Position numbers and translations under genes: made by a program. Below are positions 1,642 to 13,547 of a stretch of DNA of 13,593 nt, one piece after another. The stretch comes from JBFJWU01 sp041623475 [NCBI: bacterium] (GTDB lineage Bacteria > J088), in contig JBFJWU010000053.1 of assembly GCA_041623475.1 (NCBI GenBank), positions 1 to 13,593 of the forward strand, given 5' to 3'. Below the pieces are notes generated by a model. The model saw only the letters and a program-made list of their open reading frames with translations. It was not told the DNA's origin and ran no database searches. Within the stretch, counting starts at the first letter, position 1. Each line of letters begins with the position of its first letter.

Positions 1642-3252
1642 ATGAGCGGCTCAATCCTGACAACGCTTGTTATCCTGCCGCTGGTCGCCGCCTTGATTGC
1701 GGCGCTGATGCCCGGGCGCGAAGAACGGGTCCTCAAGGGACTGGGCGTCGTTTCAACGCTCATCATCTTCCTGGTCAGTTGCGCCATCTACCCGATGTTC
1801 AAAGTCGGTCGCGGCGCGATCCAGATGCGCGAGTACGCGGCCTGGTTGCCGGAGTATGGCATTAACTGGAGCCTGGGGCTGGACGGAATCAGCCTGTTCC
1901 TTGTCCTGCTGACCACCTTCCTGATGCCCCTGATCATGCTGGGTTCGTGGAACAGCATCAAGGACAACGTCAAGGGTTTCGTGGTCGCCATGCTGGTCCT
2001 CGAATCGGCGGTCATCGGTACTTTTGTCAGCCTGAACCTGTTCTTCTTTTTCGTATTCTGGGAAGCCATGTTGATCCCGATGGTCCTCATCATCGGTGTT
2101 TGGGGCTCCGGCAGCCGGATCAAAAGTGCAATCAAGTTCTTTCTTTATACGGCCGTCGGCTCGCTGCTGATGCTGGTCGCGATCCTTGTCCTGTACCGGG
2201 AGTCATACGACCAGTTGGGCGGGCTCAGCCTGAACTACAGCGACCTGCTGCGGTTGCAGTTGCCGCTAGAAGCCCAGATTCCGATGTTTGCCGCGTTTGC
2301 GTTGGCCTTCTGTATCAAGGTTCCACTGTTTCCGTTGCATACCTGGTTGCCCGATGCCCATACGGATGCCCCGACGCCCGGTTCGGTCATCCTTGCCGGC
2401 GTCCTGCTGAAGCTGGGAACGTACGGCCTTATTCGCTTTGCGATCCCGCTGTTTCCAGATGCGGCCATTCAATTGGCGCCGACATTGATCGGCCTGTCTG
2501 TCGCCGGGATAATTTTCGGTGCCCTGGTTGCGTGGGTGCAGAAAGATATCAAGAAACTGATCGCATATTCATCTGTGTCCCATATGGGCTTTGTCGTCCT
2601 GGGGCTGTTTGTCTTGAACAATACAGCCGCCACGGGTGCAGTTCTGCAGATGCTCAGCCACGGGATCAGTACAGGTGCCTTGTTCCTGCTGGTCGGCATC
2701 ATCTATGAGCGCCGCCATACCCGAGAGCTGGATCAGTATGGTGGCCTGGCGGCGGTCATGCCGCGGTACGCGGTCGTGTTCCTGATTGCGACGCTCAGTT
2801 CGATCGGGCTGCCAGGATTGAATGGCTTCGTCGGCGAGTTTATGATCCTGCTGGGCAGTTTCCAGTCAGGGATGGATACCTGGGTCCAGTCCCGGAATCC
2901 CGTGGTGCTGTACAGTGCCGTCGCGGCGGCAAGCGGGGTTATCCTGGGGGCCATTTACATGTTGACGTTGTACCTGAAAATGTTTTTCGGTCAGGTTACC
3001 CGGGACGAAAATCGTAACCTGCCGGACCTGACCGTCCGTGAGTCCCTGGTTCTGGCACCATTGGTTTTTGCGATGTTTGCAGTTGGTATCTATCCGGATC
3101 CGCTGCTCAAACGGATTTCGCCCAGCGTTGAAGTCATTTATTCGCGCCGGGTCAATCCGGAACAACCGGTCAGGGCACCGGCCGAAGCAAAACTGGACCG
3201 CGCCGGCAAGGTCGTTGCCAGCCGGGCAGGTGAAGGGTCAGGCCAGCCATGA
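1642..3252 (+). CDS. nuoM: NADH-quinone oxidoreductase subunit M (NuoM)
   Basis: This is the second antiporter-like, proton-translocating subunit of the complex I membrane arm, located in the cytoplasmic membrane. All the key residues of the family are visible: Glu141 in Phe-Trp-Glu-Ala-Met (TM5), Lys226 in Ile-Lys-Val-Pro-Leu-Phe-Pro-Leu-His-Thr-Trp (TM7), Lys257 in Leu-Leu-Lys-Leu-Gly (TM8) and Glu399 in Gly-Phe-Val-Gly-Glu-Phe (TM12). They match E. coli E144, K234, K265 and E407. The Lys-Asp-Ile-Lys-Lys-Leu-Ile-Ala-Tyr-Ser block at about 301-310 is also typical. At 536 residues it is somewhat longer than the usual 490-510. The excess is a charged, Ala/Pro-rich tail after about residue 503, which is not part of the transporter fold. 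The start is 4 nt after the nuoL stop with only a weak ribosome site, suggesting translational coupling. Its stop overlaps the nuoN start. Confidence 0.97.
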   Translation: MSGSILTTLVILPLVAALIAALMPGREERVLKGLGVVSTLIIFLVSCAIYPMFKVGRGAIQMREYAAWLPEYGINWSLGLDGISLFLVLLTTFLMPLIMLGSWNSIKDNVKGFVVAMLVLESAVIGTFVSLNLFFFFVFWEAMLIPMVLIIGVWGSGSRIKSAIKFFLYTAVGSLLMLVAILVLYRESYDQLGGLSLNYSDLLRLQLPLEAQIPMFAAFALAFCIKVPLFPLHTWLPDAHTDAPTPGSVILAGVLLKLGTYGLIRFAIPLFPDAAIQLAPTLIGLSVAGIIFGALVAWVQKDIKKLIAYSSVSHMGFVVLGLFVLNNTAATGAVLQMLSHGISTGALFLLVGIIYERRHTRELDQYGGLAAVMPRYAVVFLIATLSSIGLPGLNGFVGEFMILLGSFQSGMDTWVQSRNPVVLYSAVAAASGVILGAIYMLTLYLKMFFGQVTRDENRNLPDLTVRESLVLAPLVFAMFAVGIYPDPLLKRISPSVEVIYSRRVNPEQPVRAPAEAKLDRAGKVVASRAGEGSGQP

Positions 3253-4703
3253 ACCTGGACGCTATTACTGAAACCCTGCGCCTGGCGGTCGTCCTGCCGG
3301 AAATTATCCTGGTCGCAACGATCCTGATGGTGCTGATGATTGACGCGTTCAGCGACAACGACGATGCGACCGGAATGGTCTGGCTGTCGATCATTGGCAC
3401 GGCCGCAGCCGGCATTGCTGCCGCCGGGATACCGGTGGACGGCAATGCCTGGTTTACAGGGCTTGTCGTGGCCGACAAGCTGCGCCGGTTCTTTATGGTT
3501 GTCCTGGCGATTGCGGCTGTCACTGGCCTGATGATGTCCCGCGATTACCTGAGCCGTTTTACGTTGCCGGACGGCGAGTACCTGGTGCTGTACCTGTCGA
3601 GCCTGCTGGGAATGTTCATCATGGTGACTACGACCCACCTGGGCTTGATGTTCCTTGGCTTGGAAATGATGAGCATGCCGCTGTACGCTCTGACCGCATT
3701 TCGCACAAACGACCTGCGGTCCGGCGAAGGCGCCCTGAAATACTTTTTCCTGGGCAGTGCGGCGGGCGCAATGTTCCTGCTGGGCTCGGCGTTTATCTAT
3801 GGACAGTTCGGATCTTTAGACATCGTCCAGGCGTTTGCAGCCTGGGAGCCGGGTACCGGTCCTGAAGCCACAGTCGGCCTGGCCTTGCTGCTGACCGCCG
3901 TCGGCTTCAAGCTGGCGTGGGTGCCGTTCCACCCCTGGAGCCCTGACGCATACGAAGGTGCGCCGGCTCCTGTGACGGCATTCATGAGCACCGCGGTCAA
4001 GGTTGCCGTTGTTGGTGCCGGTATTCGAATTGCGATGGCAGCCGGTGACCTGATGATTGAGTTCCAGTCGGCCCTGGAAGCTATTGCCATTATCACAATG
4101 GTTGCCGGAAACCTGATCGCCCTGACCCAGGACAACATCAAACGTATGCTGGCCTACAGCTCCATTGCCCACGCCGGTTACCTGGCGATCGCATTTATGG
4201 TTTCGACACCTGGCGTTTTTGCGGCTGCCTCGTACTACGTTCTTGTCTACGCATTGATGAACATCGGTGCCTTCGGCGTCCTGATCGGGCTGTCCCGTGA
4301 CGGGGTCGAACTGGAGTCATTTGAGGATCTTCGTGGCCTTGGTCGTCGTCGGGGCGGAGCTGCGGTATTGCTGGCCCTGTTCTTTGCCAGCCTGTCCGGG
4401 ATCCCCCCGCTGGCTGGCTTTACGGCGAAATTGTTCCTGTTCGGCGAGGCCGTTCGCGCGGGCGCCACAGAGCTTGTTGTCGTCGCGGTCCTGGCCAGCG
4501 CGGTTGGTGCCTATTATTATCTGCGTCCATTGGTACTGATGTTCCTGGAAGACGGGGAAGACCGGGCTGCGGACACGACATCCCCCCTGGTGACCGCAGT
4601 CAGCATGGCCCTGGCGGCAATCCTACTGGTGCTCGGCCTGTTGCCCGGCTGGGTCATGGACCTGGCCCACGGCGCGGCCAGCCAGTTACTCGCCGGTGGA
4701 TGA
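3249..4703 (+). CDS. nuoN: NADH-quinone oxidoreductase subunit N (NuoN)
   Basis: This is the third antiporter-like subunit of complex I, closest of the three to the quinone-binding end of the membrane arm. Conserved charged residues are all present: Glu139 in Gly-Leu-Glu-Met-Met-Ser, Lys164 in Gly-Ala-Leu-Lys-Tyr-Phe, Lys221 in Phe-Lys-Leu-Ala-Trp-Val-Pro-Phe-His-Pro-Trp, Lys251 in Ala-Val-Lys-Val-Ala, and Lys394 in Phe-Thr-Ala-Lys-Leu. The TM12 lysine, rather than glutamate, is typical of NuoN. Length (484) is normal. The ATG overlaps the nuoM TGA as ATGA, a classic coupled arrangement, which fixes the start. It is the last nuo gene here, matching the usual L-M-N order at the 3' end of nuo operons. 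Confidence 0.97.
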   Translation: MNLDAITETLRLAVVLPEIILVATILMVLMIDAFSDNDDATGMVWLSIIGTAAAGIAAAGIPVDGNAWFTGLVVADKLRRFFMVVLAIAAVTGLMMSRDYLSRFTLPDGEYLVLYLSSLLGMFIMVTTTHLGLMFLGLEMMSMPLYALTAFRTNDLRSGEGALKYFFLGSAAGAMFLLGSAFIYGQFGSLDIVQAFAAWEPGTGPEATVGLALLLTAVGFKLAWVPFHPWSPDAYEGAPAPVTAFMSTAVKVAVVGAGIRIAMAAGDLMIEFQSALEAIAIITMVAGNLIALTQDNIKRMLAYSSIAHAGYLAIAFMVSTPGVFAAASYYVLVYALMNIGAFGVLIGLSRDGVELESFEDLRGLGRRRGGAAVLLALFFASLSGIPPLAGFTAKLFLFGEAVRAGATELVVVAVLASAVGAYYYLRPLVLMFLEDGEDRAADTTSPLVTAVSMALAAILLVLGLLPGWVMDLAHGAASQLLAGG

Positions 4704-6212: not shown

Positions 6213-6225
6213 GAGGAATATTTTG
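6213..6225 (+). promoter_or_regulatory. Shine-Dalgarno and TTG start of the desaturase
   Basis: GAGGA at 6213-6217 sits 5 nt before TTG at 6223. No ATG or GTG in the frame lies at a comparable distance, and the first ATG downstream (6343) would remove the first membrane helix, so the ribosome site decides for the TTG start. Confidence 0.75.
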
Positions 6226-7425
6226 ACCACTTCAGCTGCGTCGTTGCCGCACCACAAGCACGACGATATTGTTTATCCCGGGACCATTCCTTTTATCCTG
6301 ATTCATCTTTCTGTCTTTGCCGCGTTCTGGACCGGTGTCAACATGGTTGACATCTGGATCTGCCTGGCGCTGTACTGGATCCGGATCTGGGGCATTACGG
6401 CCGGGTACCATCGTTACTTTTCCCATCGAACCTACAAAACCAGCCGCTGGTTCCAGTTTGTCCTGGCGTTTGTCGGCGGTGCGTCAGCCCAGAAAGGGGC
6501 AATCTGGTGGGCCTCGATCCACAGGCGACACCACAAGTACTCGGATACGGCCTACGATGTCCATTCGCCGCGGCAGCATGGATTCCTGTATGCCCACGTC
6601 GGCTGGATTTTCGCCGAGCGCAATGACAGTGATGAGCTGGACTTGTCCAATGTCGGTGACCTGACCCAGTACCCCGAACTCATGTTCCTCAACAAGTACC
6701 AGCACCTGCCCGCGATTCTTGTGGGGACAGCTGTCTGGTTTTTCGCGGGTTGGTCCGGTCTGGTAATCGGGTTCCTGCTGAGCACCGTCCTGACGTGGCA
6801 CGGCACGTTTTTCATCAATTCAATGGCTCATGTCCACGGCAACCAGCGTTACGTCACTGGTGACGACTCCCGAAATAACTGGTGGCTGGCGTTGATTACC
6901 CTGGGCGAGGGATGGCATAACAACCACCATTATTACCAGTCGTGCGCCCGCCAGGGGTTCCGCTGGTGGGAAATCGACGTGTCCTATTACTCGATCAAGC
7001 TGCTCCAGTGGATGGGGATCGTCTGGGAGGTCAAAGAACCCAGCGCCGAGGTTATCGCGGGCGACCGCCGCCTGCCGGGGCCAATCAGCGCCCGTGCCAA
7101 GGAAATCTACGCCGCGATGGCCGAGTCCGTGGACGGATTTGCCGACAAGGGGCGTGGTGTCCTTGATACAGCAGGATCCCGCTGGGACCATTTCACGGAA
7201 ACCGGCAAGGTTGCTGTACGGGAAGCAATGATCCAGGTGTCCCAACGCTTCGACGAAGTCAGCGAGGGGGTCTCGGAAAAGGTTGAGCCTGTCAGAGTCG
7301 CTGCTCGCGAGGCAATGGCGCAGGCCTCCGAAGCTGCTGGACACGCCCGCAACCAGGCTCGGGAAGTCCTGGAAACGACTGCCGAAGCACTGGATCCGAA
7401 CAAAGCAGCCTACGACGTCGACTGA
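6223..7425 (+). CDS. SCD-type acyl-CoA/acyl-lipid desaturase (probable delta-9) with helical C-terminal extension
   Basis: This is a membrane di-iron fatty acyl desaturase of the stearoyl-CoA desaturase type, which introduces a cis double bond (usually delta-9) using O2 and electrons from a redox partner. The metal ligands are visible: HRYFSH (63-68), HRRHH (100-104), HNNHH (232-236), plus Asn199 and His203 in Asn-Ser-Met-Ala-His, the extra ligand region of this family. Hydrophobic segments lie at about 22-60, 76-94 and 162-200. The core ends near residue 275. Residues ~280-400 form an extra hydrophilic, predicted helical tail rich in Ala, Glu and Arg, with a 12-residue near-repeat (330-341 and 359-370). 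The TTG start is supported by GAGGA 5 nt upstream. No electron-transfer partner such as a ferredoxin reductase or cytochrome b5 is adjacent. Regiospecificity and substrate form are inferred from the family only. Confidence 0.93.
   Translation: MTTSAASLPHHKHDDIVYPGTIPFILIHLSVFAAFWTGVNMVDIWICLALYWIRIWGITAGYHRYFSHRTYKTSRWFQFVLAFVGGASAQKGAIWWASIHRRHHKYSDTAYDVHSPRQHGFLYAHVGWIFAERNDSDELDLSNVGDLTQYPELMFLNKYQHLPAILVGTAVWFFAGWSGLVIGFLLSTVLTWHGTFFINSMAHVHGNQRYVTGDDSRNNWWLALITLGEGWHNNHHYYQSCARQGFRWWEIDVSYYSIKLLQWMGIVWEVKEPSAEVIAGDRRLPGPISARAKEIYAAMAESVDGFADKGRGVLDTAGSRWDHFTETGKVAVREAMIQVSQRFDEVSEGVSEKVEPVRVAAREAMAQASEAAGHARNQAREVLETTAEALDPNKAAYDVD
7210..7332 (+). repeat. Near-repeat of a 12-residue helical segment in the desaturase tail
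   Basis: Residues 330-341 (Val-Ala-Val-Arg-Glu-Ala-Met-Ile-Gln-Val-Ser-Gln) and 359-370 (Val-Ala-Ala-Arg-Glu-Ala-Met-Ala-Gln-Ala-Ser-Glu) share the pattern V-A-x-R-E-A-M-x-Q-x-S, 29 residues apart. The surrounding sequence has the composition of amphipathic helices, as in phasin-like or apolipoprotein-like tails. This is a protein-level repeat; the codons have diverged. Confidence 0.6.
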
Positions 7426-7530: not shown

Positions 7531-7560
7531 TTGATTCCGGGATGGCAGAACCGATATAAT
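7531..7560 (+). promoter_or_regulatory. Sigma70-type promoter of the giant Ig-repeat gene
   Basis: TTGATT (7531-7536) and a perfect TATAAT (7555-7560) are separated by 18 nt. Transcription would start at about 7566-7568, giving a 5' leader of about 35 nt before the ATG at 7602. A dedicated promoter here implies a transcription unit separate from the desaturase. Confidence 0.75.
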
Positions 7561-7589: not shown

Positions 7590-7604
7590 GGAGCAAAAAC
7601 AATG
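7590..7604 (+). promoter_or_regulatory. Shine-Dalgarno of the giant Ig-repeat gene
   Basis: GGAG at 7590-7593 is followed by an A-rich 8-nt spacer and ATG at 7602. This start places a basic n-region and hydrophobic core directly at the N-terminus, as expected for an exported protein. Confidence 0.75.
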
Positions 7605-10600
7605 CGTGTTCGTTTGGCCTTGACCGGCTTTCTTACCCTGTCGACCGCCGTCGCTTGCGGCGACTCGCGTGAGTTTACTGTTGGTGTTACACGTCCCTTG
7701 CAGGTAATCAGCATCAGTCCTTCGGGCGATTTTCCTGCTGGTGGTGCCGACAATGTCGCCCGTGACGCGCTGGTCGCGGTCGTCTTTTCCGACAACGTGG
7801 TTGAATCGACAGTTACCGGCGGTGGCATCACACTGCTCAATGGTTCCGATACGGTAGAGTCGGTCATTACTTACGATGCCGAGTCATTCACGGCAACGTT
7901 GGCACCTGCCAGTCCACTGACGTTTTCAACCGTTTATCACATTGTTGTCGACCGCACCGTCATTCGGGTGGATGATGAAGCTGTCCTGGCACAGGAAATT
8001 GACCAGTATTTCAAAACCGAAGATCCGCCTTCCCTGGCGATCTCATCAGTCTTGCCTGGCCACGGTTCAACCAGTACCGGATTAATCGTCGACAGCGACG
8101 GAAACACACAGTCGTTGGGGAACCGCGTCGCCCTGCCTGTCACTGCGACATTCAGTGAAGGCCTCAATTCGGGCAGCATTAATGAAGCAACCTTTTCGCT
8201 GGTCCGGGTCACGGATCAATCAGTCCTGCCTGCGACAATCACGCTGTCGTCCAGCGACGCTGCTTTCGCGAACGAATTCGGCGAACCACTGAGGACGAAC
8301 GACATCGCGACCCTTGTCAGCGACGAATTGTTGCATCTGAGTACAGAATATGAATTGCAGGTTTCCAGTGGCGTGGACTTACTGCGCAGCGCCCGTGCGA
8401 CGACCGAAGGCGGATGGATCGAGCCAGGATTTCAGGCGTTTACCCTGCGGACACCAGACCCGAATCCACTAAGCCTGCTGGCTGCGTTGCCGGGTGCTGG
8501 CAGTCGGGGAATCGGAAATGTCGTCTATTTTGACGGCGTCTCATCTGTCGCAGCGGGCGAAGCGTCCATCTTTGGAAACAGGGTCAGTCGTGAGGTCACA
8601 ATTGTCTTCAGCGAATCCGTGTCAATCCAGTCTTTTGCAGCCAATGTCCAGATCCTTGAGGCCGATAATGACGGCGTTGCCGGTGCCTTAACGGTTTCTG
8701 GTTCCTGGGTGGCGACGGCATCGGATGGCAGCACATTACCCTGGCGTCGAACAGATACCTGGACCTTTTCGCCCAGCGAACCTTGGAACCTGTCTGCAAA
8801 CTACGTCCTACGAATCGGTGCCGACCTCGAGTCCTGGCGCGCGACGGCAACCGGCGGGCGAATCGGAATTAACCTCGACCTGGACTGGGAATCTCGCCAT
8901 CCGCGCGATTTCGTTGTAACCAACGTCTGGCCCAGCGACGGATCGACAAATGTCGGAACACTCCGTTATTACGACAGCACTACCGCAATCGCCGTGGCGC
9001 CGGTAACGAGTTACGTCCTGACGCAATTCGGAAATTATGCGACCGCACCGGTTGTGGTTCGATTCAGTGAATCCGTCGATCGGCAATCAGCAATTGATGG
9101 CATTACCGTCTTTCCCGCAGACGAATTCGGAAACGCGACAACCATCACGCCAATTAACACGATCCTGGTCTTTTCGGGGTCCGGCTCCCAGGCGTGGTCA
9201 GCCACGGACGTTGTTACGATTGTGCCCGATCACAATGCAGATGGAATCGAGGACTTTTGGGAATTAAGTGGTGACTACCTTGTGGTGATCGATGGTTCCG
9301 TAAAAAGCTATCGTGCGACCAGCGAAGACCTGGGCGGTATCCTGGCCGGAGAATTGAATAACGACACAACCATTCATTTTGAAATCGCCCATCCGGCCGG
9401 CCTGCTTGTAAACAGCAACGTTCCATCAACAGACGGGACCAATGTTGGTATTTTGACTCCGGACCTCTTTGGAAATTCGGCCACCTTTGAAACCGTCATC
9501 AAATTTTCGGAACGATTGTCGGCAACCAGTCTGCCGGCGATTCGCATTCTGGATGTCACAAGCGGCACGGACCTGACCTCGGGATTTACTGTTTCGTTCG
9601 AAAACAGCGGCATCGATCCCTGGCTTAACGATGACATCATACGAATCGCAAATTCAGGTTCCCTGATGGATATTGACCTGTCGCGAAACGTGCGGGTCCA
9701 CGTTCCGGATTCTGTCAAATCCTACCGGGCCACATCGGAATCGGGATGGCTGCCATCGGATCTGGTTGTCGACTGGGACGTTGCCGACCCCCTGCCCCTG
9801 TTTCTGGACCGGACAAGCCCTGGCGACCAGGTTGAACTTTCTGATGCGGAATTGAACGACTGGTCTATCGCTGGATACAGTTCGGTATCACCAGGTGACG
9901 GGGTCAGTGGATTCACGATCGATCTGGTGTTCAGCGAGCCCGTTGATCCGGCCAGTCTGGCAGCGAACCTGGTTGTTTACGAAAACGGCCTTTTGCCCGT
10001 CGCCGGAGCAATATCGTACAGCGGCGGAAATACGACAGCTACGTTTACGTCCGCCTCGGTTTTAGGGCTTTCAAGTTCATACTCGGTTGAATTGACAGGT
10101 GGAAATCTACTGATGCCGTTCGCAGGTGTCGCATCGGTGCGTGGCGTTAATGTCCAGGACTGGTATGACCCCGCCGACGACTACGGCGGTTACCTTGACG
10201 GGGACCACAACGTTATTTTCTCAACTCCGGATCCGGCCGATATCATCCTGTCCGGGATTACCCCGCCGGTTGATGTCACCGGTTACACCGACAATATTAC
10301 CCGCGGGGTTTCAATTTCCGTACAGTTCAGCGAACCGTTGTCATCTTCAGTGGTTTCATCACCGGGGTCCTACGTTCGATTGGTTAATACGGACGATGCC
10401 AGCGTCGTCGCCGCAACGTACACGATGGCTTCTTCGAACCGGCGAATTGTGATTGATCCGGTTGCCGAACTAGACTTTTCGACGGTCTATCGACTCGATC
10501 TGGAAACTGGTGGTCCAATTCGCAGCTGGCGTGCCAATGCATCGGGCGGCGATTACGACGGCAGCAATGCGTTCTACTTCAAGACGTTGGATCCAGCTGT

Positions 10601-13547
10601 GTTGACGATCTGGGCGACGAGTCCCAGCGATACGGAGGACGGGTTCGGGATTTCGGTGTCTGATGTGGGCATTACCGGTCAATTGCAGATCGTCTTTAAC
10701 GAGCCGATCGTACGATCAACCTTTGAATCGTCATTTCAAATGGAATCATGCGGGGCCAGCTCTGCTGGTTGCGAACTTGACGATCCGGCGGCACCTAGCG
10801 ACCCGGTTACGGGCCTTGCGTTCAGCTATGCGTTTTCTGACCAGAAAGTCAATATTGATGCAGGCGTATTGAATTACAACACCTACTATCAATTCAAGGT
10901 AACCGGGGGATCGACGGGTGTCCTGAGCGTATCTGCGGCGACAAATTGCAGCAGTAGTTGTGAAGACGGATTTCTGCCGACGGATTACCTGGTGTTGTTC
11001 CGGACGCGTGAGGCACCCCCCCTGGATGTCGATTCGGTGACTCCGGTCGAAGGTTCAACCGGGAATCCAATAGACACGCCGGTCATCGTCCAGTTCTCTG
11101 CAGACGTGTCCGTAGGGACATTGACAGGAAGCTCATTCTTCGTCACCGATGTCAGTAACAATCAACTCGTGCACCGGTTCGGTGACGCGACAACCGATGC
11201 TTTTTACAGTTCCGGCTTCACGGCGCAGATGGTTCTGCCGACCAACGCACTACAATTTGACACCCAGTACGATATCGTCGCCCTGTCGTCGATCCGCAGC
11301 ACCGACGGCAGGTTCCTGGCCACGGACCGGCGAATGACATTCCGTACCAAACTGGCATCTTTGCTAAGCCGGACGGACCCCGATGATGGCGAAAAGAATG
11401 TCGAGGTTACTTTGCAAAACCGGCCGGAAAACGCCGGCAGTATCACGGTTGTTTTTGACCAGGCTGTAACCCTCGAGTCGGTTGCGACCTTGGACAGTGC
11501 CTTGCAGGTAACTTACGAAACCGCGCGCGGTGTGGTCAAGTTAACCGGGGAATTTGTAACCACCGCCACCGAATGGCAGTTCATACCTGACTCGTTCTGT
11601 ACACCCGCGACGACACCCCTTGAGTTGAATGCGACTTACTATGCCCGCCTGGACAATACAGTCTGGGCCGCCGATGGCAGCGCCCAACTGGGCAGCGTTT
11701 TCAATTGGACGTTCGATACCAGTTCAGATCCGAAACTGGCTGCGATCGAGGCGACCAGCGGGGTCCCCGGATTGCCGGACCTGGAGATCGATCTGGTGAA
11801 CGATACCGACTCACAGAACGGTGAAGGTGCGGATGATGTTCCGATCGGCAGTTGGATCGAAATCAGTTTCTCGAGGGCTATGGATGGCGCAACAATCGAC
11901 TGGACCGTGCCTGCAGATCCTGACAACGATACGTTAAGGGTCGTTCGCTACGACGGCTCTTATATGGATCTGTTCAACGTTACGGTTAACAGCGACGATA
12001 TTCGCTTTCAGGTCGAGGACCCGGACTATGCTGACATCCTGGCCGGCGGCAACATGGCGTTCAGCACAACGTATACGATCGAGCTTGACGAAATCATTGC
12101 TGATACAAGCGGTAATCCGCTGGACGGGGATTACGAGTTGACATTCAAAACGAGTGTTGCTCCGCGGGCCTGGTTGTTGCCGGCTGCGGGTGACGGCAAC
12201 AACAAAGACCAGAAATACGCTCCGTCTATTACATTCAGTACGGAAATGGTTGCCACGTCGATCGATGATTCAAACCTGTACCTTTGCGAAGGGTCGGGAA
12301 CCTGCACGACATTTGTTCCGTCGCTGCTTGATTTTGGTGAAGACCTGTTCAGCGCAGCGTTGATTCCAACGCCGATCATGGCTGCATCGACCGGTCACAC
12401 GTTCTTTTTGGTTGTTGGCGCTGACGGTCCGCGAGACCGGCGGGGCAATCCGGTCCCCGGGGCGCCCGTTGGCACCAACTATACAAAACAATTCGGTTCA
12501 ACAGCAAACGACAATGGCACGACAACACTATCGTGGACCGCACGGTACCCGGCGTCCGGCGGGTCGGCGGCTGGTGGCGGACCAATATCGCTGGTCTTGA
12601 CGGAAAGCAACACAATTGCCGATGTTATGGCGACCAGGGTCGACCAGAGTTCGTTCTGGGTTTTCTATGATGCCGGTCATGCCTTGCCGGTGACCGGCCG
12701 GGTCTATTATGACCAGGTCACTGGCGCGGCCGTCTTTGTGCCCGCTGATGGTGTCTATTTCAATGCCGGGCAAACCTACTTTGTCGAAAATAACAGTTCC
12801 CTGGCTTCGTCGATTCGAAATGAATGTACGAACTGCGCGGATTACACGTTTGTAGGCGAATCAGTCGCGCCGACTGTTGCGGGCATTGCCCCCGCGGGTG
12901 CGGCGGAGCCGGCAACAACAAACATTGTTGTCACATTCAGCGAACCGGTTCGGCCGGCGTCATTATCGGCAGGTGTTACAGTCGAGGACAGCGGCTCAAA
13001 TGCTGTTGCGGGTTCATGGCGTACCTTGGGCAGGCGAGCAATCTTTGACCCGGATGATCCAGTGCGTGGTGGCGAAACCTATACTGTATCGGTCCTGGCG
13101 ACGGTTGTTGACCTGGCAGGAAATGCGTCAGGGACTTCCAGCCAGTCGTTTACTATAGAGTCGGGGGCGCCATCCGTGGTCAGTATTGATCCGGCTGATG
13201 CGTCAGGTTATGCGACGACATTCAGCACGGTAACCGTGACATTTGATGAGGATGTTTCACCAGGCAGTGTCACCGCAAGCCTGCCAGGTGTGTCGGCAAC
13301 GATTCCTGGTTCTGTTCGGTTGACGCTGAATGGCGTTGTCGATCCACTGGACCCGTTGGATGTCACCAATATGGCCGCCGAGGTTTCAACCTGTACATAC
13401 GTTCGGGACAACGTCGTTGAAATCGTTCCGTTGCAGGGCCTGGCCGATGCAACGACCTATGCGCTGGGTATTTCCAGTTGGGTTACAGACCTTGGTGGTA
13501 CAGCGCTGGGTGTGCCGTCGTCAACCAGTTTTACAACTGTACCGTGA
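7602..13547 (+). CDS. Giant exported protein of ~15 Ig-like (SbsA/Big_5-like) repeats, probable lipoprotein
   Basis: A 1981-residue surface or periplasmic protein of unknown function. Residues 1-18 are a signal sequence (Arg2, Arg4, then a hydrophobic stretch) ending Ala-Val-Ala before Cys19. This is an acceptable though not ideal lipobox, because position -3 is Ala rather than Leu. Gly20 at +2 and no inner-membrane-retention Asp would favour the outer membrane. From about residue 33 the protein is a chain of Ig-like units of 100-160 residues. Each has a strand of the form V-x-F-S/D-E-x-V/L (for example 335-340, 487-492, 634-639, 776-781, 908-913, 1778-1783). Each ends in F-x-T-x-x-P or a close variant (137-142, 993-998, 1976-1981). 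Units 2-7 share S-[WYA]-R-A-[TN]; later units have D-x-x-G-N (1836-1841). Cysteines other than Cys19 occur only after residue 1049, mostly in close pairs. There is no enzymatic domain and no LPXTG, PEP-CTERM or RTX signal. Likely structural or adhesive, by analogy only. Confidence 0.85.
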   Translation: MRVRLALTGFLTLSTAVACGDSREFTVGVTRPLQVISISPSGDFPAGGADNVARDALVAVVFSDNVVESTVTGGGITLLNGSDTVESVITYDAESFTATLAPASPLTFSTVYHIVVDRTVIRVDDEAVLAQEIDQYFKTEDPPSLAISSVLPGHGSTSTGLIVDSDGNTQSLGNRVALPVTATFSEGLNSGSINEATFSLVRVTDQSVLPATITLSSSDAAFANEFGEPLRTNDIATLVSDELLHLSTEYELQVSSGVDLLRSARATTEGGWIEPGFQAFTLRTPDPNPLSLLAALPGAGSRGIGNVVYFDGVSSVAAGEASIFGNRVSREVTIVFSESVSIQSFAANVQILEADNDGVAGALTVSGSWVATASDGSTLPWRRTDTWTFSPSEPWNLSANYVLRIGADLESWRATATGGRIGINLDLDWESRHPRDFVVTNVWPSDGSTNVGTLRYYDSTTAIAVAPVTSYVLTQFGNYATAPVVVRFSESVDRQSAIDGITVFPADEFGNATTITPINTILVFSGSGSQAWSATDVVTIVPDHNADGIEDFWELSGDYLVVIDGSVKSYRATSEDLGGILAGELNNDTTIHFEIAHPAGLLVNSNVPSTDGTNVGILTPDLFGNSATFETVIKFSERLSATSLPAIRILDVTSGTDLTSGFTVSFENSGIDPWLNDDIIRIANSGSLMDIDLSRNVRVHVPDSVKSYRATSESGWLPSDLVVDWDVADPLPLFLDRTSPGDQVELSDAELNDWSIAGYSSVSPGDGVSGFTIDLVFSEPVDPASLAANLVVYENGLLPVAGAISYSGGNTTATFTSASVLGLSSSYSVELTGGNLLMPFAGVASVRGVNVQDWYDPADDYGGYLDGDHNVIFSTPDPADIILSGITPPVDVTGYTDNITRGVSISVQFSEPLSSSVVSSPGSYVRLVNTDDASVVAATYTMASSNRRIVIDPVAELDFSTVYRLDLETGGPIRSWRANASGGDYDGSNAFYFKTLDPAVLTIWATSPSDTEDGFGISVSDVGITGQLQIVFNEPIVRSTFESSFQMESCGASSAGCELDDPAAPSDPVTGLAFSYAFSDQKVNIDAGVLNYNTYYQFKVTGGSTGVLSVSAATNCSSSCEDGFLPTDYLVLFRTREAPPLDVDSVTPVEGSTGNPIDTPVIVQFSADVSVGTLTGSSFFVTDVSNNQLVHRFGDATTDAFYSSGFTAQMVLPTNALQFDTQYDIVALSSIRSTDGRFLATDRRMTFRTKLASLLSRTDPDDGEKNVEVTLQNRPENAGSITVVFDQAVTLESVATLDSALQVTYETARGVVKLTGEFVTTATEWQFIPDSFCTPATTPLELNATYYARLDNTVWAADGSAQLGSVFNWTFDTSSDPKLAAIEATSGVPGLPDLEIDLVNDTDSQNGEGADDVPIGSWIEISFSRAMDGATIDWTVPADPDNDTLRVVRYDGSYMDLFNVTVNSDDIRFQVEDPDYADILAGGNMAFSTTYTIELDEIIADTSGNPLDGDYELTFKTSVAPRAWLLPAAGDGNNKDQKYAPSITFSTEMVATSIDDSNLYLCEGSGTCTTFVPSLLDFGEDLFSAALIPTPIMAASTGHTFFLVVGADGPRDRRGNPVPGAPVGTNYTKQFGSTANDNGTTTLSWTARYPASGGSAAGGGPISLVLTESNTIADVMATRVDQSSFWVFYDAGHALPVTGRVYYDQVTGAAVFVPADGVYFNAGQTYFVENNSSLASSIRNECTNCADYTFVGESVAPTVAGIAPAGAAEPATTNIVVTFSEPVRPASLSAGVTVEDSGSNAVAGSWRTLGRRAIFDPDDPVRGGETYTVSVLATVVDLAGNASGTSSQSFTIESGAPSVVSIDPADASGYATTFSTVTVTFDEDVSPGSVTASLPGVSATIPGSVRLTLNGVVDPLDPLDVTNMAAEVSTCTYVRDNVVEIVPLQGLADATTYALGISSWVTDLGGTALGVPSSTSFTTVP
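7698..13544 (+). repeat. Tandem array of about 15 divergent Ig-like units
   Basis: Approximate unit limits in residues are 33-142, 143-287, 288-434, 435-598, 599-730, 731-878, 879-998, 999-1139, 1140-1249, 1250-1377, 1378-1521, 1522-1640, 1641-1751, 1752-1856 and 1857-1981. Limits were set from the closing F-x-T-x-x-P-like strand and the early V-x-F-S-E strand. The unit at 1641-1751 is the least typical and begins with a Gly/Ala/Ser-rich linker (1651-1660). The array runs to the last residue, so the protein ends on a complete unit. Divergence at the DNA level is high, so the array is old. Confidence 0.7.

What the first reader, a model, noticed from the sequence alone, without database searches (positions are those of the whole stretch)
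8388..10554. Repeat-specific S-[WY]-R-A-[TN]-x-x-G-G motif in units 2-7 of the giant Ig protein
The arginine recurs at residues 265, 413, 571, 709, 847 and 977, each in the penultimate loop of its unit and mostly followed by Gly-Gly or an Asp/Gly-rich stretch. Ordinary Big_5-like units have a D-x-x-G-N turn there, as the C-terminal units of this same protein do. Six conserved Arg/aromatic loops spaced 130-158 residues apart could form a regular ligand-binding or self-association surface. I do not know a named family defined by this motif.
Basis: partly seen in the sequence, partly recalled or inferred. Interest (0 to 1): 0.6.

Follow-up and report, generated by a model that had tools for sequence, protein, structure and literature searches.

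The report
Bacterial Ig repeats with arginine loops
A long, probably lipid-anchored bacterial protein is built of about 15 common immunoglobulin-like repeats, and in six neighbouring repeats the usual aspartate turn is replaced by a longer loop with an arginine in it; this looks like an uncommon version of a known building block, and its job is not shown.

Summary
Arginines 265, 413, 571, 709, 847 and 977 are there, one per unit, in the loop before the last strand. S-x-R-[AG] is in 6 of 6 units, S-[WY]-R-A-[TN] in 4 of 6, the full motif in 2 of 6 (units 3 and 7). It exceeds chance (0 of 5000 shuffles, post hoc pattern). The protein is a 1981-residue predicted lipoprotein of about 15 tandem Big_5-type units. 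The motif replaces the ordinary Big_5 F-G turn (G-V-K-D-x-A-G-N): of 109 foreign domains with that column filled, 97 have Asp and none has S-x-R-[AG] in the loop. Units 2-5 share further landmarks and each scores under Pfam's cut-off alone, as do units 8, 12 and 13 without the motif. No motif-bearing relative turned up in the collections sampled. Best reading: a divergent Big_5 subtype in the anchor-side half of a repeat stalk, the loop serving fold or junction stability where ordinary units use an Asp turn. Ligand binding or self-association has no evidence; the model is weak (pLDDT 60.6) and gave no coordinates to test one face. New variant of a known kind; modest interest.

The parts
7602..13547 (+). 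CDS of the repeat protein P0001, 1981 aa, about 15 Big_5-type units
   Evidence: translation; Pfam Big_5 E 1.8e-79, 8 stretches; 15 stretches by iterated profile
7602..7661 (+). signal-like sequence with lipobox-like T-A-V-A-C (Cys 19); lipoprotein predicted by eye from a recalled pattern, no predictor run
   Evidence: sequence; a relative with an I-I-G-C box and the same EFTVGV-x-RPL start is in L089
8028..10595 (+). units 2-7 (residues 143-998), the motif-bearing units; boundaries set by hand
8388..8417 (+). unit 2 loop SARATTEGGW, Arg265
8832..8858 (+). unit 3 loop SWRATATGG, Arg413 (exact motif)
9306..9338 (+). unit 4 loop SYRATSEDLGG, Arg571 (two extra residues before GG)
9720..9749 (+). 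unit 5 loop SYRATSESGW, Arg709
10134..10190 (+). unit 6 loop SVRGVNVQDWYDPADDYGG, Arg847 (divergent, long insert)
10524..10550 (+). unit 7 loop SWRANASGG, Arg977 (exact motif)
8115..8123 (+). unit 2 landmark LGN (FGN at 8571-8579, 9027-9035, 9468-9476 in units 3-5) before strand B
   Evidence: [FL]GN[RYS] occurs 4 times, once in each of units 2-5; shuffle mean 0.15
8286..8303 (+). unit 2 landmark PLRTND (PWRRTD 8739-8756, AWSATD 9192-9209, PWLNDD 9618-9635 in units 3-5), an insert before strand E
   Evidence: the pattern alone is not beyond chance ([PA][WL]...D: 5 found, one of them in unit 15, shuffle mean 2.13), its shared place in the alignment is the point
10926..10973 (+). unit 8 loop SVSAATNCSSSCEDGF: long F-G loop of a similar kind without the Arg, with a C-x-x-x-C pair
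13110..13124 (+). unit 14 ordinary Big_5 turn DLAGN (contrast)

Best explanation
P0001 is a predicted lipoprotein whose body is a chain of about 15 Big_5-type immunoglobulin-like units. Units 2-7 (and, without the Arg, perhaps unit 8) are a divergent subtype in which the short F-G turn G-V-K-D-x-A-G-N is replaced by a longer loop of the form V-K-S-[aromatic]-R-A-T-x-x-G-G. Shown: the equivalence of the loops, the missing Asp, the extra length, the shared landmarks of units 2-5, and the keeping of S, R and G at protein level while codons differ. Inferred: in tandem Ig units the F-G loop sits at the pole facing the preceding unit (general knowledge), so the Arg/aromatic loop most likely packs within its own pole (with the insert before strand E in units 2-5) and against the preceding linker, and so steadies the fold and the unit-unit junction in the anchor-side half of the stalk. 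It would do by side-chain packing what an Asp turn, with bound calcium in some bacterial Ig domains, does in ordinary units. Units 11, 12, 14 and 15 keep the Asp turn.
For: Big_5 identity of the protein and of 8 of 15 units one by one (1, 6, 7, 9, 10, 11, 14, 15). The motif aligns with the F-G turn. At the turn's Asp column 97 of 109 foreign domains have D and 7 N; none of these 109 has S-x-R-[AG] in the loop, and none of 114 C-terminal segments has S[WYVAFIL]R[AG][TNVS]; P0001 has Ser there in units 3-9, Asp in 11, 12, 14, 15. Model of units 4-5: Arg571 and Arg709 (model residues 136, 274) each lie near the start of an 8-10 residue coil between strand F (123-128, 262-266) and strand G (154-159, 286-290). 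Units 2-5 share [FL]GN[RYS] and an insert before strand E. Ser codons are AGC/TCC/AGC/TCC/TCG/AGC and Arg codons CGT/CGC/CGT/CGG/CGT/CGT; pairwise identity is 3-7 of 8 in motif columns (picked partly for conservation) against 19-29% elsewhere, so this is not a fresh DNA duplication. Literature: the beta6-beta7 loop of the LdtMt2 Big_5 domain held density read as Ca2+ near Asp232 in a crystal grown in 50 mM calcium chloride (PMC3605043, section 3.4 read); in SiiE the type I Ca2+ site lies in the domain interface, and the mutant that removes one changes one Asp in unit 51 and two in unit 52 (PMC5466336, passages only).
Against: No coordinates and a weak model, so contact with the preceding unit is not shown. 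In a strict calcium-site swap the B-C loop Asp should be lost in motif units and kept elsewhere; it is D or N in units 2, 4, 6 and 11 and neither in the other 11, so it does not track the motif. The linker acid that an Arg could pair with is present before units 2, 3, 6, 7 but is His before units 4 and 5. Units 1, 9 and 10 lack the Asp in that column but have one within a few residues, so the Asp loss depends on the alignment there. Units 8, 12 and 13 also fail Pfam's cut-off without the motif. No relative was found in which the loop could be tested for conservation.
Confidence: 0.45

Rival explanations
1. One reading: the exposed Arg/aromatic loops form a regularly spaced binding surface for a ligand (for example a sugar or acidic polymer) or for self-association between chains.
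For: Loops are equivalent in all six units by alignment and are coil in the model for units 4 and 5; Arg plus Trp/Tyr is a common make-up of binding loops (general knowledge); windows over the motif are as conserved as the fold's core.
Against: The aromatic is absent in units 2 (Ala) and 6 (Val), and unit lengths run from 121 to 162, which makes a strict one-face array unlikely; the units lie in the half nearer the predicted lipid anchor; no partner or relative found.
Confidence: 0.2
2. Plain inheritance: an ancestral duplicated unit carried this loop, and units 2-7 kept it without a particular function.
For: Units 2-5 are 22-33% identical to each other and share other landmarks; unit 8 looks like a decayed copy of the long loop.
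Against: At 19-29% identity elsewhere S, R and a G are still kept in 6 of 6 while codons differ, which calls for selection; but the motif columns were picked partly for conservation.
Confidence: 0.25

Closest known systems
Big_5, Pfam PF13205 (bacterial Ig-like domain)
   Same: Whole protein E 1.8e-79; 8 of 15 units pass the cut-off singly; the early Pro, the F-S-E core and the closing F-x-T are shared by most units.
   Different: Units 2, 3, 4 singly score 20.1, 19.7, 11.9 bits and unit 5 has no match, against the cut-off 23.6; F-G turn longer, Asp missing, Arg added; inserts before strands B and E in units 2-5.
Big_5 domains of LdtMt2 (M. tuberculosis L,D-transpeptidase 2)
   Same: Ig fold; the model of units 4-5 aligns to the domain pair 4hu2 at Z 8.8, but with rmsd 14.0.
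   Different: There the loop between the last two strands has Asp232, Gly234, Gly236 and held density read as Ca2+ in one crystal form (PMC3605043); here no Asp in that column. No catalytic domain here.
N-terminal domain of alpha-amylase AmyB (3bc9)
   Same: Best structural match of unit 5: Z 10.8, rmsd 2.1 over 98 residues, 18% identity.
   Different: One domain on an enzyme; whether it has such a loop was not looked at.
SiiE, giant BIg-repeat adhesin of Salmonella
   Same: Long chain of bacterial Ig units; simulations in the paper support stiffening by sites at the junctions (PMC5466336, abstract start and passages).
   Different: Secreted by a type 1 system and stiffened by Ca2+ at Asp sites; P0001 is a predicted lipoprotein and its motif units lack the F-G Asp. 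Not compared by sequence here.

Membership tests
Big_5 (PF13205) | profile score above the curated cut-off (23.6 bits), whole protein | tested here: met
   263.7 bits, E 1.8e-79
Big_5 (PF13205) | profile score above the cut-off for the motif units one by one | tested here: inconclusive
   units 6 and 7 pass (30.9, 35.6 bits); units 2, 3, 4 score 20.1, 19.7, 11.9 and unit 5 has no match
Big_5 (PF13205) | F-G turn D-x-x-G-N (a common feature seen here, not a formal criterion) | tested here: not met
   units 3-7 have Ser in the Asp column; unit 2 is cut short in that alignment and reads Leu; 97 of 109 foreign domains have Asp
Bacterial lipoprotein | N-terminal signal with lipobox and Cys | tested here: inconclusive
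   sequence T-A-V-A-C by eye against a recalled pattern; no predictor was run
SiiE-type Ca2+-clamped BIg stalk | Asp ligands at the unit junction | tested here: inconclusive
   F-G column is not Asp in units 1-10, B-C Asp/Asn is scattered; that these columns match SiiE's sites is an inference, no alignment with SiiE was made

The most novel reading that the evidence does not exclude
Units 2-7 are the first seen members of a distinct Ig-repeat class in which the Asp/calcium-type turn at unit junctions has been swapped for an Arg/aromatic clamp or binding loop, giving a regularly spaced array along a lipid-anchored stalk in an uncultured deep bacterial lineage.
Probability: 0.15. Interest if true: 0.5.

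Novelty: new variant of a known kind. Interest (0 to 1): 0.3.

Why it matters
If the loop really replaces an Asp or calcium turn at unit junctions, it would show a second way for long bacterial Ig stalks to be stiff, one that does not need calcium. It would also mark a Big_5 subtype that the present Pfam profile under-calls (units 2-5 fall below the cut-off one by one).

Tried and rejected
Relatives. The genome-contig scan with P0001 gave none (28 candidate stretches). The second and last scan went to NuoN to place the organism (236 relatives, best 80 kept, at most 43% identity). The NuoN tree and the quick NuoM tree put the window on a long branch of unsure place, nearest to delta-proteobacteria-like rows by path, and in the NuoM tree beside an Acidobacteriota row, which the program itself flags as a possible long-branch join; the lineage is not settled. 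P0001: 3 of 25 handle genomes with a match, 11 of 198 of one phylum; (8 of 148 each) returned the same eight genomes and add little; searched the same 2 genomes. First 156 residues: 29 of 395. Units 2-7 profile A1: 7 of 150, 8 of 345, 3 of 48. The samples overlap. Only the best matches were given as loci; the Big_5 domains in the loci fetched were pooled. No positive control was run for how well A1 would find a motif unit elsewhere.

Motif-loop profile A4 in 16 genomes with a loose limit (9 of 16 with a match at E up to 10): the best match (E 0.00125, L156, whole protein in L171) proved to be T-S-W-R-G-T-N-E-G-G in a stretch that I take, from recall, for a FISUMP-type domain and not an Ig unit: rejected. 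The other matches are at E 0.117 or worse; I looked for S-x-R-[AG] in the forward frames of four of their loci (L158, L160, L161, L168) and saw nothing Ig-like.

Plasmids and phages by tblastn: no match. Viral contigs: 5 stretches, none a relative. PDB sequences: P0001 itself one weak match, E 0.16; profile of units 2-7 two phage chains at E 0.41 and 0.6; profile of all 15 units two TssM sequences at E 0.00017 and 0.0002 and one at 0.049. PHROGs: best E 0.048. Foldseek: listed rows are generic Ig chains, query TM 0.20-0.27.

The calcium-site swap in its strict form (B-C and F-G Asp lost together) was tested and not supported. A second structure job (15 units, unit 3 first) was interrupted and could not be repeated. 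Literature searches were made; the motif's letters were not searched for. Seen: PMC3605043 passages and section 3.4, PMC5466336 and PMC7821625 passages; the rest as search listings.

Full report
What is there. The window carries on the + strand the end of a NuoL-like gene (proton antiporter family by Pfam; called nuoL from its place before nuoM), nuoM and nuoN (NCBIfam), a CNNM/CorC-type protein and a fatty acid desaturase (Pfam), then one long gene at 7602-13547 for a 1981-residue protein, P0001. No whole genome is held for the window. P0001 starts with a signal-like sequence ending T-A-V-A-C, which fits a lipobox from recall, and is otherwise a chain of about 15 immunoglobulin-like units of 100-162 residues (boundaries set by hand; 15 stretches by iterated profile). 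Pfam calls it Big_5 with E 1.8e-79 and eight stretches.

The observation. Each is in a different unit, units 2 to 7, 21-30 residues before the unit's end. The motif as written is exact only in units 3 and 7; four of six have S-[WY]-R-A-[TN]; six of six have S-x-R-[AG]. Unit 6 is a poor fit. In 5000 shuffles of the protein the pattern S[WYVA]R[AG][TNV] was found at most twice, against six observed; the looser S-x-R-[AG] reaches six in 0.32% of shuffles. The patterns were chosen after seeing the data, but that the hits fall in one loop of six consecutive units is not part of the pattern. In the alignment of units 2-7 windows over the motif are the most conserved of eight columns, level with the F-S-E core; Ser and Arg codons differ between units.

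What the loop is. Iterated profile alignment with foreign units puts the motif on the turn between the last two strands, where ordinary Big_5 units read G-V-K-D-x-A-G-N. Of 114 unique foreign domains from the loci fetched, 109 have the turn's Asp column filled: 97 Asp, 7 Asn, 3 Ser, 1 Thr, 1 Arg; none of the 109 has S-x-R-[AG] in the loop, and none of 114 C-terminal segments has S[WYVAFIL]R[AG][TNVS]. Nearly all these domains came from loci picked for likeness to P0001 or to units 2-7, from few phyla, and overlapping loci may give near-copies, so this is not a census. In P0001 that column is Arg in unit 1, Ser in units 3-9, Ala in 10, Asp in 11, 12, 14 and 15 (unit 2 is cut short in that alignment and reads Leu, unit 13 has a gap). 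Units 1, 9 and 10 have an Asp within a few residues, so the alignment matters there. Unit 8 has a long loop of a similar kind with a Cys pair and no Arg.

A subtype. Units 2-5 also share [FL]GN[RYS] before strand B (four hits, one in each; shuffle mean 0.15) and an insert [PA][WL]xx[TND]D before strand E (that pattern alone is not beyond chance). Taken singly against Pfam, units 2, 3 and 4 score 20.1, 19.7 and 11.9 bits under the cut-off of 23.6 and unit 5 has no match, while 6 and 7 pass; the match ends before the Arg in units 2, 3, 4 and 6 and runs through the loop in unit 7. Units 8, 12 and 13, which lack the Arg motif, fail the cut-off too.

Structure. The model of units 4 and 5 has mean pLDDT 60.6 and pTM 0.51. 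Both arginines come near the start of a coil of 8-10 residues between strands F and G, in blocks of pLDDT 68 and 60. Unit 5 matches the N-terminal part of amylase AmyB (3bc9) at Z 10.8, rmsd 2.1 over 98 residues; matches that span both units mostly have rmsd about 13-14, so the angle between units should not be trusted.

Relatives. No motif-bearing relative was found, with the limits told under Tried and rejected. The organism could not be placed.

How it may work. In an Ig unit the F-G loop is at the pole facing the preceding unit (general knowledge). In the LdtMt2 Big_5 domain the loop between the last two strands held density read as Ca2+ near Asp232 in one crystal form (PMC3605043, section 3.4). 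In SiiE an interface Ca2+ site, removed by Asp-to-Ser changes, stiffens the chain (PMC5466336, passages). I infer that in units 2-7 the Asp turn has been given up for a longer Arg/aromatic loop that packs locally and at the junction. Against it: the B-C loop Asp does not track the motif, and the acid in the preceding linker is His before units 4 and 5. A ligand or self-association surface, and plain inheritance from one ancestral unit, remain open.

Verdict. A real, repeat-specific variant of a known domain family, with unknown job; not a new kind of system. Interest 0.3.

Noticed in passing
window 10926-10973: Unit 8's F-G loop has C-x-x-x-C (residues 1116 and 1120) where units 2-7 have the Arg loop; perhaps a disulfide-stapled version of the same long loop.
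   Followed up: partly
window 6223-7425: The desaturase has a C-terminal tail that weakly matches the apolipoprotein A1/A4/E family (E 0.0045, 17.2 bits against a cut-off of 90), an odd addition for a desaturase.
   Followed up: no
L089 / L172 (G056): A protein start with 43% identity to P0001's N-terminus, including E-F-T-V-G-V-x-R-P-L, runs into a 100-N gap within its first unit; suggests a small family of such lipoproteins.
   Followed up: partly
window 7531-7560: Sigma-70-like promoter match TTGATT-18-TATAAT just upstream of the P0001 start (10 of 12; shuffle mean 0.2).
   Followed up: no
window 1642-4703: NuoN has at most 43% identity to any row found and NuoM at most 56% over nearly its whole length, 60% over one partial stretch, so the organism is a deep, unplaced lineage.
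   Followed up: partly
L171 669-7595: A 2309-residue protein of another genome holds T-S-W-R-G-T-N-E-G-G in a non-Ig stretch, with repeated Y-Y-A-[AS]-G-W units and a stretch that looks like a sulfatase-modifying-factor domain (family names from recall).
   Followed up: no
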